From: Tubiluchus corallicola
Lineage: Eukaryota > Priapulida > Priapulimorpha > Priapulimorphida > Tubiluchidae
Reading direction: 5' to 3'
NCBI GenBank assembly: GCA_030141605.1
Contig: JAQGDQ010000160.1
Location: forward strand, 248,001 to 312,000
DNA: 64,000 bases
In this document: piece by piece, positions 12,521-21,500 of the stretch
How positions within the stretch are numbered: position 1 is the stretch's first letter
Layout of the letters: every line of letters begins with the position of its first letter
Made by a program: the position numbers and the translations under genes
The notes under the pieces: generated by a model
Seen by the model: only the letters and a program-made list of their open reading frames with translations
Databases searched by the model: none
What the model was told of the DNA's origin: nothing

Positions 12521-15500
12521 CTATGTGCCAATTATATACCTTTTGTCATCCAGCTGAGCTTCGGCATACTCTCTAGAAAAGAAAAGTCAGTCTGTCAGAA
12601 TTTGAAAGAAAATGTCCAACAGTACTTAAGATTCACTTATATATTCTTAATCTGACATGAAGGCTTATTACTGTTTATTAGTAACATACTTCAGCAAATG
12701 TTAGAACAAAAATATTTTGAAAACGGCCAGTAAGCAATACTTGTTTGTCCATAGCCAAAAATAAAACTTATACTACAGTGCGTGTACAAAATAGAAGAAG
12801 ATGAAGATTAAGAATATGATTAAGAATTTAATAATTGTTCACCAAGTTTTAAATTTATGCAAATGTTCAATATTATATTTCTTTTCTGGGACAAGGACCT
12901 TATAAAAAGCACTATAAAAACTGGGCAGACACTTGAACCAGCAAAAGAAAGAAAGCACAAGCTTTGTCTCAGAATGACAGAGAGACTGTTAGTTGTGATG
13001 TCCTAACTGTAATCTTATAACCGGAACTTCTGACATTACCTCATACTTGGTTAAGAACTCAGCGACAGTACCAAATATTTGTTCAGTTGTTACTTTTTTC
13101 GCATCTTCTTGAAAGTAGTTGAGCATCGAGTTGAATGCTTCAATAGCAGAAGCCTGTAGACTAAATAATGACTGTAGATTGTCAGAAGCCTCAGAAATAA
13201 AGTGCTTAGAAGTCAGTTAAAGAACAACATAAGAAATGATGAAAACGAATGTATAAAGCAACAATACAAAGCATATAAGTAACATATGAAACATGTAAAG
13301 ATATACAGTTTAGAACAAACTATAATTAATATTGTTAATATTTGTTAATAATTCCTGTCTTGGTTTTTTCATATTATTATTAACGACAAACTTTCAACAT
13401 GTATTTTGCATTTGGCTTTTCTTAAGTTCACGTAAATAGTCACATATTTCGCTATTTAGCAGTGATTTTTTTCTAGCTTTGTTTGATGCTTTAATTTTAA
13501 TGACTCATTTCAATATAATTGCCTAATAGGTCCAATAAGTGCATATTTTTTAACTTTAGTGTTGCCCTGAAAATGGCTTAATAACCCAAACAATTTCTGT
13601 TGTTCAAGGTCACGGATAGTAGGCATTTGGGTAGTGGACATTTGCACAATGAACAGTTGGGCAGTGGGCACTTACACAGCAGACATTTGGGTGGTCTGTT
13701 GGGCAGTGAATACTTTAGGGCTTAAGGCAGTACAAGTGCTATAGGAACAAAGCTATTTAGCTACTTACCTACCTCTACCTACCTACCTACTTATTCATCT
13801 ATATGCTTACCAACCTACCTGTGTAACTTCCCTCTTTCCCTCCCTGCCTGTCTATCTGCCTGCCTGCTTATCTACCTACCTGCCTACCTACTGACCTACC
13901 GCCTACCCCTCTACCTACCTAGTTACTTTCCCACCATCCACCTTATTACCTACTACATAGCTATCTGGCTAATTATGTAGTTAGGTTGATAGATATGTAA
14001 GTAGGTAGAGGGGTAGGCTGGTAGGTCAGCAGGTAGGCAGGCAGGCAAGCAGGCTGATTGGTAGGTAGATAGGTAGGCAGGCAAGCAGGCAGGCAGGGAG
14101 GGAGGTTATTTAAGTATGTAGGTCATGATAAACTGCTCAATTAATAAGATAATAATTTTATCTCAAGTGCAAACGAGAATTTGCTCATCAAACCTCGATG
14201 TTTAAGCTAGCTAAGTTTTGTAATAACATGTCTACTGCATATCAACACGAGTTAACGGTAGTGGTGCTAGGCAGTCTGCTTCAACAACCTCTGACATTAG
14301 AGTATCTGGCATAATTACAGCACTACGAATCAGAGAAACAAATACAAAACAAAAAAAATTAGAGAATAAACACAGAAACATTTCGGAACAAAAAAGTAAG
14401 CCAGAAAATATGTGACTATATTATAAATATATCAACCAATGCAAGGATACACCGATGACATCGTGAAATTTGTCCACAGTACCAGAATTGCTTGCAGAAG
14501 TATTAGACAGTATGCGAGATATTTGCTGCAACAAACGTCGCAACTCTCCCAATTCACTGTAGAGTTCTTTGCTGGACACTAAAATGGTAGGACGAAATTG
14601 TTTAGTACACAGTAAAAATCAGAAAACTATATGCGAGCTATTGTACACAGACAGTCCTAGTTACAAATCATCCTGGTTCGTCAAATTAAATTTCTCTTCA
14701 TAAATAAGAAGCTACAATATAAAACAAAGAAAAAACAAACTTTAAAAGCAAACATTTAGAAAAAACAAAAAGGTAGTTGATCACAACAAAATTTATCAAT
14801 AATAATAACATTTTGGGAAACCATTGCTCTCTTCAAGAACTAACATAAAACGAAATACACCTTTCATTGTACGCAATCATTAAACTCTGTTCAATGAAAG
14901 GAGTTTGTTTTTTTGTAATAAACTTTGTAGTGATTAAAACTACTTCTTTTTTACATACGGATACACAATGCTACTCATCAATTACTACACAATTAGTAAA
15001 GTAATTACCTTTAGCCAACTTAGGAATTGTACGCAGTTCACTAGATATAGAGAAACATTCTGGGTAACAGGTCTGAACTGCCTGCACAACTTCCTGCAAC
15101 AGGTTTGTTTGATTCACAGTCCAAATGTTGTCCAGCTAAAAAGCAGAATATAGAATTAGAGTGTCACTTCTAATAAAGTGTTCAATATGAAGCATGTTTA
15201 TAAAAATTGCAAAATTACGTTGTGTCAGTTTTAGTTGAAGACACAAATACAACAACATCACTGTTCCATGATTGTGTGTCAATAGTTCAGAAAAGTATAC
15301 AGAAAAGTAAATTAAAATAATGAACTACATGTATTATTAAAGTAATTATTATGAAACTTGCTGGTAAAAAACTATGATGCTTTTAAGTAAATTAAAATAA
15401 TGAATTACACGTATTATTAAATTATTATGAAACTTGCTGGTAAAATACTACGATGCTTTTTTCCAATTAACTACTGCTTTATGCACTAGTAATTTTTTAA

Positions 15501-18500: not shown

Positions 18501-21500
18501 GGATCCAACAATTCCTCATCCATCAAGTACAGAGCGCTCTTGACTTTAGTCAGGGGAATACGTATGCTACCTAGTATAATTGCTGCAATAAATAAAGAAG
18601 TAAAATTACCTTCCACATAGCACCATAAAAACTGTATATAGAACTACAAGCATTTTAGCACATTAGTACTAATCATAAATAACCACAAAGACGAATGTAT
18701 TAAATTAAATTAGATTTATTAAATGGTTATAATTTGACAGCTTTCAATCCAGGACACTAAAAAATTAACTAATAAACTCAAATGATATAAATATAGCAAC
18801 AACCTAAAATTTATGTACAATTTTAGCATACCTCATCAGTAATAACTAACTGCTTACTATTTAAAAAAATTAAAATAACAAAAAACAAAACACTACCAGT
18901 AATTGAACAGAATGACACAAAAATGTTGATGTTAATAAATGGAACAAAATGTCACATACAAATATTGTAAGCCTTTTTAGGTTTCAGGATACCAAGTAAT
19001 TGAGATTTTTTCCCAGCTGAAAGAAATGAATCTGCATGTCTCCCCGGGTTCTGCTGATTTCCTTTGCTGACAGACGCCTCGTACTGCTCTATACGTGGTG
19101 TGATCTAAAAATGAAAAGTGAGCAATATGGAGAGATAAGGTCTTATGCATTTGGCAGTAAATGAAACTCTACAAGGTTTATTCTTGGAATGCAGCACAAT
19201 AAACTGTATTTGTCGTTTTCATTTGTAAAATAGCATAAATTCTTACCTGAGTCCCAGTCTTTACTGCTCTTATCTCACTTGTAGGTACAGTATCAGCTGG
19301 GAGTGGTGGTGGAGGGGGCGGATAAGGTGGCCTATGTCCCGCTGAGCCAGTCCGCTTATTTACTTGACCGTTAACAGAAGGAACATTGTTTGCATTACCA
19401 ACAAGGTGATTCTGGTTTTTCCTATTTTGTAAGTGTTCAGAGTCATGATTCTGATACATAAAATTATTACTGTAAGACGTTACATTTTGCTCAATCTCTG
19501 CCTGTCTTATGTAACCTTCATGTATATATGCAGGTTGGTCCACACCACTGCTGTCAAAAGGCTGAAAGACAGAGCGTGGTTTGGGAGTGGGACGGGATCT
19601 CAAATCTTCTTCCACATTAGGTTTTGAAGCAGACTGAATGTATTTCCAGTCATCGTAAGGCGAACGATATTGTGATCTGGGATCATATTTGCGCAGTCGA
19701 ACCTCTGTGCGTACATTATATGGTTCTCTGTGTTTCATCTGACCTCCGCTGCTATTAAATTGTGCAGCAGAATCAGCTAAACTAGGTTGATGATTACCAA
19801 TTTTGTTTCCTATATCAGCTCGATTTATTAGGAAGCTTTTTTGGCCATGGCCCTGGTCAGAGTTCCTTTGAACAAAGTCGTGTCGAGAATGAGGCACATG
19901 TTCTTTAATATAATGCTCATGTGGAATAGCGCCAGGATAAACATCATTTCTGAGAGCAAATTGTTGATCGATATCTCTGTCAGGTTGCTCATAAGTGTCA
20001 TAACCATTTCTGAGGTGCCATTCATCATCATAATGCGGATTAATTCCGTGTGATTTGAGTTGTTCATATGGAAGTCTACTTTGTCTAAGATGTTGTTTTC
20101 CTTGGTATATTTTATATTCTCTAACAGGTTCACGATTTATGTTGTCAAGAAGATTTCTCTGAGAATCCAGTTTACGTGTGACCCGAGGATTGTCTCCTTG
20201 TGTGGAAGAATGCAGATTGTTCCTCTCATAAGAGTTTTCTTGAAAAAAAACAAGTTCTGCATAATTCGCATCATTCTTTTGAGAAAATTCCTCTCCATCA
20301 ATGTATTTAAAATCATCATCTATCTGAAAAGCTTGCTGATCCATATAACTGGGGTTGTTTCTCTGCTGAGAGGTGGCTCGAAATTCATAATGTGGGTTTG
20401 TTCTCGCTGGTTCATCTCTATGATAAGGGTTCCTCTCCAGTTTCTGTTGTACCTTCGTTAAATATCGGTGACGTTCACTGTCCTGTTCTGGATTAAGAAA
20501 TGGCAAGGACTTCTGCGCTGCATTCGAAGAGAACGGGACACTCCGCTGCATGGAATGAACATTTTTTGGCAGTGAAGCCCAAGTTCTAGGCTGTTCTACA
20601 TCAGTTTCAGTTTCCTGGTCGCTGTTATCTATGAGGTAATTCATAGGTTGAATATCCTGTCCTCGTGCAGATCGCTTATTAAGAAAGGCACTGCTGTCAG
20701 GTGTTATGGATCTCTTGACATAGCTGAAAGTAAAAAAAATGTAAAATAAATCAAGTTATATCATATCATAAAGAAAAAAGTAAAAAAAGCGAGTTTGTGT
20801 AAATGTGTACGTGTGTTGCATCTACAGTTATATTGTACCTTAATACTCATATTAGCTTATGCAGGTCATGTGACGTGAACTATAACTGTTAAGTAAGATC
20901 TATTTTATAGTGATATAATTTAGGCAAAAAAACAGCTGATCATAGCAACATAGGTAAACACCTGGACAAGTGGAAATAATGAAATATTATACCAGCCTAT
21001 TTTGTGAGATTTATTCCAGAACATGCATTGTAAAACAAATTTAGGTCTGAACTATAGCTGCAAAATAACGTCTTTAGTCCTATTAAACTTTAACGTTTTT
21101 CCACATTTTTATTATTGCATACCTTGATTGTTGTTTAACCTTACTAACATTTTAAGGTAATGAATATATAACAAAGCAAAATGCAAAAACACAAAACTAT
21201 GTTTAGAATATTCATTTTAATTATTTACCCTTTAAAGTCACTTTGATCTTCTCTGAGTAAATCCGGATTTGAAGTGGACCGATAGCGATCAACACCACTG
21301 CCTTCACTTTGGTAGTCTAACTGTGATTGCGGACGTCGTGGATACCCTGGAGGAGGCAGATACGGAGGCGGATTGTATCCTTTATGCTGTCGACCAAAAT
21401 CCGTAAAGGTGCTCTTGTGCTGGTGGTGCTGCGAAGGAAGGGTTTTTGGATAAGCTTGATTGAAAATGTCACTAAATGGTCTGTTACCAACTGAAGTGGA

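What the first reader, a model, noticed from the sequence alone, without database searches (positions are those of the whole stretch)
14451..19247. Delphilin-like FH2 lacking its usual lasso tryptophan and GNYxN core
The FH2-like region aligns well in many blocks ([61 protein letters not shown]). However, the exon before it ends soon after the proline run ([11 protein letters not shown]), and no W-containing lasso sequence follows. At the position where formins have GNYxNxG...GFKL the exon reads [19 protein letters not shown]. Exon phases close without a gap and the 142-bp intron between exons 16 and 17 leaves no room for a lost exon. The lasso mediates FH2 dimerisation and the missing central block is a hallmark of actin-nucleating formins, so this protein may have kept the fold as a scaffold while losing actin assembly.
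Basis: partly seen in the sequence, partly recalled or inferred. Interest (0 to 1): 0.72.

Follow-up and report, generated by a model that had tools for sequence, protein, structure and literature searches.

The report
Delphilin formin with eroded dimer interface
This is the single delphilin (a formin-type, actin-linked scaffold protein) gene of an invertebrate animal, and its usual actin-assembling FH2 domain has lost the arm that makes it dimerise, the signature motif around the matching socket, and one of its two actin-contact residues, so it probably anchors or caps actin rather than building filaments.

Summary
On the minus strand, nine exons (21,734 to 13,040) join in one stop-free frame. 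They encode an FH1 proline run and an FH2 domain (Pfam E = 2.2e-62) that matches profile positions 49-371 of 372; positions 1-48, the lasso, are absent. Only a 142-bp intron lies between FH1 and the FH2 core, and it holds no TGG codon, so no lasso tryptophan can be encoded there. The GNYxN...GFKL block is not missing but degraded in place: mDia1 G967-N968-Y969 read R-K-Q and K994 reads W, while N971, F982 and the knob residue I845 survive. Upstream lie three PDZ and at least two harmonin-homology domains, the GRID2IP/delphilin architecture. It is the only delphilin found in the genome, and six other formin loci of that genome keep GN[YF]xN. Most likely the gene is functional and its FH2 no longer dimerises or nucleates, but may still bind or cap actin through the knob. 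Orthologues, transcripts and a structure could not be obtained. Verdict: new variant of a known kind, of moderate interest.

The parts
36870..36965 (-). PDZ1, first part (approximate)
   Evidence: Open frame; joined with the next exon, Pfam PDZ E=2.3e-9
36100..36312 (-). PDZ1, second part and start of PDZ2 (approximate)
35270..35441 (-). PDZ2, second part (approximate)
   Evidence: Pfam PDZ_6 E=2.3e-9, PDZ E=3.5e-7
33514..33687 (-). Possible first harmonin-homology domain (HHD), weak
   Evidence: USH1C_N E=0.017, below the curated cut-off
31610..31706 (-). PDZ3, first part
   Evidence: Joined with the next exon, Pfam PDZ E=1.2e-12
30870..31031 (-). PDZ3, second part (approximate)
26765..26965 (-). 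Harmonin-homology domain (approximate)
   Evidence: USH1C_N E=7.7e-4, below the curated cut-off of 27 bits; 49% identical to the next HHD
25062..25255 (-). Last harmonin-homology domain, first exon (approximate)
   Evidence: USH1C_N E=1.5e-5 with the next exon, 25.3 bits against a cut-off of 27
23952..24097 (-). Last harmonin-homology domain, second exon
21229..21734 (-). Exon, low-complexity linker with [12 protein letters not shown]
   Evidence: Splice model without stops
19247..20723 (-). Exon, linker ending in the FH1 run [11 protein letters not shown] and [11 protein letters not shown]
19105..19246 (-). 142-bp phase-0 intron where the lasso should lie; no TGG codon
18960..19104 (-). FH2 exon: linker and start of knob (KPKKAYNI)
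18455..18582 (-). FH2 exon: knob; carries the retained I845-equivalent isoleucine
16502..16660 (-). FH2 exon ([20 protein letters not shown])
15999..16136 (-). FH2 exon with degraded signature block [21 protein letters not shown] in place of GNYxN...GFKL
15009..15135 (-). FH2 exon [17 protein letters not shown]994 equivalent is W
14451..14578 (-). FH2 exon
13040..13204 (-). FH2 exon, C-terminal helices ([29 protein letters not shown])

Best explanation
An intact, single-copy delphilin (GRID2IP-subtype formin) gene in which the FH2 domain has lost both sides of its dimer interface. The lasso is gone from the gene, probably through loss of coding sequence that left a clean phase-0/phase-0 splice, and the post motif next to the lasso-contact residues (GNYxN...G, with K994) has been substituted. 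The remaining knob-and-post core should fold as a monomeric or loosely dimeric helical bundle. The protein would work as a PDZ/HHD membrane or junction scaffold whose FH2 remnant binds or caps actin weakly through the knob, without nucleating or processively elongating filaments. Shown here: gene structure, domain order, missing lasso, substituted residues, single copy. Inferred: fold, loss of dimerisation, loss of nucleation, residual actin binding, scaffold role.
For: Stop-free spliced frame. FH2 E=2.2e-62, profile 49-371 of 372. PDB DAAM1 E=3.9e-35 and mDia1 E=3.8e-29. Of 51 residues identical in mDia1, DAAM1 and human delphilin outside the lasso and linker, 25 of 36 are kept in the rest of the domain but only 5 of 15 in the central block (Fisher p=0.028); both lasso tryptophans are absent. 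No TGG in the only intron that could hold a lasso. Six other formin loci of the same genome keep GN[YF]xN, and another retains both lasso tryptophans. Single copy in the held assembly. mDia1 lasso-contact post residues 957 and 986 flank GNYMN 967-971, and actin-site residues are I845 and K994. A lasso-less FH2 of another formin is mainly monomeric and does not raise the polymerisation rate. Human delphilin is already a weak nucleator.
Against: No transcript, orthologue or structure was available. The FH1 proline run that normally feeds profilin-actin is kept, which would be odd for a protein with no actin role. The PDZ/HHD part could dimerise the protein by another route. The central-block enrichment rests on 15 positions and three reference sequences.
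Confidence: 0.62

Rival explanations
1. Active but unorthodox formin: the FH2 core is dimerised by PDZ/HHD or other segments and still assembles actin, with FH1 delivering profilin-actin.
For: FH1 run [11 protein letters not shown] kept. I845 equivalent kept. Lasso-less FH2 of another formin still associates with filaments and keeps a tendency to dimerise.
Against: The second actin site (K994) is W and the post motif is degraded. Lasso-less constructs of another formin do not raise the polymerisation rate.
Confidence: 0.15
2. Assembly or sequencing artefact: the lasso exon was dropped from this contig.
For: Some homeobox loci appear twice with equal scores and frame lengths, so haplotypes are not perfectly resolved. 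No reads could be examined.
Against: No N in the window; the 142-bp intron has ordinary donor, acceptor and phase. The degraded GN block sits in a separate exon about 3 kb away and cannot come from the same error. No second delphilin FH2 was found in the assembly.
Confidence: 0.08
3. Missed alternative exons: another isoform supplies a lasso and/or a canonical GNYxN block.
For: Formin genes are often alternatively spliced (general knowledge). The lasso profile scan is weakly sensitive for delphilin (7.9 bits when held out).
Against: Gene order leaves only the 142-bp intron for a lasso, and it has no TGG. The post profile finds nothing better than the known exon in all six frames of the window, while held-out true post blocks score 31-94 bits.
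Confidence: 0.07
4. Ongoing loss: the whole gene is a young pseudogene.
For: Several residues invariant in the references are substituted.
Against: Nine exons close without stops, splice sites are intact, and most invariant residues outside the interface are kept. PDZ domains score above the Pfam cut-off.
Confidence: 0.06

Closest known systems
Human/vertebrate delphilin (GRID2IP)
   Same: PDZ and harmonin-homology domains, FH1, FH2; FH2 about 32% identical, the best of the three references compared
   Different: Vertebrate delphilin keeps the lasso tryptophans, GNYLN, GFK and K994 equivalents, and nucleates actin weakly
Ancestral metazoan GRID2IP architecture (PMC5628938): PDZ-PDZ-HN-PDZ-HN-FH1-FH2
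   Same: Same domain order, with an additional HHD-like exon
   Different: The FH2 here lacks the lasso and the intact post motif. PMC5047451 reports two conserved lasso aromatic residues in every formin it examined
FOZI-1-like nematode proteins (divergent FMNL-type FH2)
   Same: A formin-derived FH2 that has lost a conserved part
   Different: FOZI-1 is truncated in the knob but keeps lasso aromatic residues; here the knob is kept and the lasso is lost
Lasso-deleted Plasmodium formin 1 FH2 construct (PMC3302767)
   Same: FH2 core without lasso
   Different: An engineered deletion with an intact post; here the loss is natural and the post motif has also changed

Membership tests
Formin FH2 family (PF02181) | Significant match to the FH2 profile | tested here: met
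   E=2.2e-62, 211.8 bits against a cut-off of 34.8
Formin FH2 family (PF02181) | N-terminal lasso with two conserved aromatic residues | tested here: not met
   Match starts at profile position 49; no TGG in the 142-bp intron; TGG triplets at 19,256, 19,015 and 18,994 lie off-frame within the exons
Formin FH2 family (PF02181) | GN[YF]xN...GFKL signature of the post | tested here: not met
   RKQLN...PFQL at that place; six other formin loci of the genome keep GN[YF]xN
Formin FH2 family (PF02181) | Two actin-contact sites, I845 and K994 of mDia1 | tested here: inconclusive
   I845 equivalent kept, K994 equivalent is W; contact itself not measured
Formin FH2 family (PF02181) | Dimerises and nucleates actin | not testable with these tools
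GRID2IP/delphilin subtype | PDZ and harmonin-homology domains ahead of FH1-FH2 | tested here: met
   Three PDZ above the Pfam cut-off; two HHD-like regions at E=1.5e-5 and 7.7e-4, below the curated cut-off, and one weaker
GRID2IP/delphilin subtype | FH2 closest to delphilin FH2 | tested here: met
   BLASTP: delphilin E=3e-53, DAAM1 1e-39, mDia1 7e-31; only three references, no tree

The most novel reading that the evidence does not exclude
A clade-wide delphilin lineage in which selection kept a lasso-less FH2 core as a monomeric actin-end cap or actin anchor within a PDZ/HHD scaffold: a natural formin that no longer dimerises, with coupled loss of lasso and lasso-binding motif.
Probability: 0.3. 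Interest if true: 0.6.

Novelty: new variant of a known kind. Interest (0 to 1): 0.42.

Why it matters
The animal-formin survey read here reports the two lasso aromatic residues in every formin it examined. A natural formin without the lasso would separate the FH2 fold from dimerisation and filament assembly, and would show what delphilin's scaffold part does alone. It also predicts that lasso and post motif are lost together, which can be tested across related species.

Tried and rejected
Aligning short paralogue fragments gave a misaligned, unused alignment. COX1 and 18S searches to name the organism failed. A silicatein probe found only ordinary cathepsin L (CGSCWAF), so there was no support for a spicule-bearing demosponge. 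Homeodomains then showed a bilaterian Hox set, probably lophotrochozoan by my reading. Phase mismatch at exon 14,578 was resolved by moving the donor from 14,453 to 14,451. An off-frame W-x6-W in exon 19,104-18,960 (frame 0, [13 protein letters not shown]) was rejected as a lasso: it ends at once in a stop and the conserved KPKKAYNI is in another frame. Papers on molluscan or sponge delphilin add nothing beyond Pruyne 2016/2017.

Full report
Observation. The gene lies on the minus strand. Splicing nine exons from 21,734 to 13,040 at GT...AG sites gives one frame without stops. The exon with the proline run [11 protein letters not shown] ends at 19,247 with [11 protein letters not shown]; after a 142-bp phase-0 intron the next exon begins [11 protein letters not shown]...KPKKAYNI. 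The spliced region matches Pfam FH2 at E=2.2e-62, profile positions 49-371 of 372, and solved FH2 structures DAAM1 (3.9e-35) and mDia1 (3.8e-29). The FH2 fold is therefore not in doubt, and the part missing is the N-terminal lasso.

Can the lasso be hidden? Gene order leaves only the 142-bp intron between FH1 and FH2 core, and it contains no TGG triplet, so it cannot encode either lasso tryptophan in any forward frame. A lasso profile scan of the whole window found only background scores (best 6.7 bits). That scan is a weak control, because a held-out delphilin lasso scores only 7.9 bits. The post profile is a good control: held-out true post blocks score 31-94 bits, the window's own block scores 13.4 bits, and no better alternative exon exists in the window.

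The central block. It is degraded, not missing. In mDia1 numbering G967-N968-Y969-M970-N971 reads R-K-Q-L-N, G981-F982 reads P-F, and K994 reads W; I845 in the knob is kept. All eleven residue identities that PMC2948013 gives for mDia1 and DAAM1 fall on the right letters, and parts are confirmed by the PDB alignments; the delphilin sequence was not independently checked. Of residues identical in all three references, 25 of 36 are kept outside the block and 5 of 15 within it (Fisher p=0.028). Six other formin loci in the same genome have GN[YF]xN, and one of its formins shows a lasso with both tryptophans, so this is not a feature of the organism's formins in general.

Why the two losses belong together. 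In mDia1 and DAAM1 the lasso tryptophans of one subunit insert into pockets of the other subunit's post. Post residues 957 and 986 of mDia1 contact the lasso, and K994 belongs to the lasso/post actin site (PMC2948013). The GNYMN motif, 967-971, lies between those two contact residues. Loss of the lasso would relax selection on exactly this surface. This coupling is inference from position in sequence, not from a structure of this protein.

What it is. Upstream exons encode three PDZ domains above the Pfam cut-off and two to three weaker harmonin-homology domains. This is essentially the PDZ-PDZ-HN-PDZ-HN-FH1-FH2 architecture proposed for metazoan GRID2IP (PMC5628938). FH2 is closest to human delphilin among the three references. 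No second delphilin FH2 or second copy of the last HHD at comparable similarity was found in the 343.5-Mb assembly. The organism is an animal with a bilaterian Hox set, probably lophotrochozoan (the reading of the homeodomains is mine). Pruyne reports two conserved lasso aromatic residues in every formin examined, including molluscs, annelids and a sponge, so the present state looks derived, but no orthologue could be examined here.

Mechanism. Removing the lasso from Plasmodium formin 1 FH2 leaves a mainly monomeric protein that associates with filaments but does not raise the polymerisation rate, and core FH2 domains are described as inhibiting polymerisation by binding barbed ends (PMC3302767). 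Human delphilin is already a weak nucleator (PMC9360399). I therefore expect a PDZ/HHD scaffold with an FH2 remnant that at most binds or caps actin through the knob. Retention of the FH1 prolines is the main observation that does not fit a protein with no actin role.

Limits. Function is inferred throughout.

Noticed in passing
window 17,724-18,213: Short non-coding element in an FH2 intron with 38-nt terminal inverted repeats, 95% complementary, and further matching 20-nt outer arms (100%), 378 nt apart: MITE-like.
   Followed up: partly
window 13,772-14,105: Degenerate CTAC/GTAG-type repeat arranged as a large inverted repeat (arms up to 74 nt) in an FH2 intron.
   Followed up: partly
window 27,939-28,712 (-): Open-frame fragments with a weak helix-turn-helix match (HTH_23 E=4e-4, below cut-off), possibly a transposon remnant, in an intron between PDZ3 and the next HHD.
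   Followed up: partly
G000 C1776/C2120 and C205/C528: Homeobox loci on different contigs with identical match scores, frame lengths and homeodomain sequence, suggesting uncollapsed haplotypes in the assembly.
   Followed up: no
window 23,952-26,965 (-): Two neighbouring harmonin-homology domains, 49% identical, both with ILDTPSK, suggesting a tandem domain duplication not in the published GRID2IP layout.
   Followed up: no
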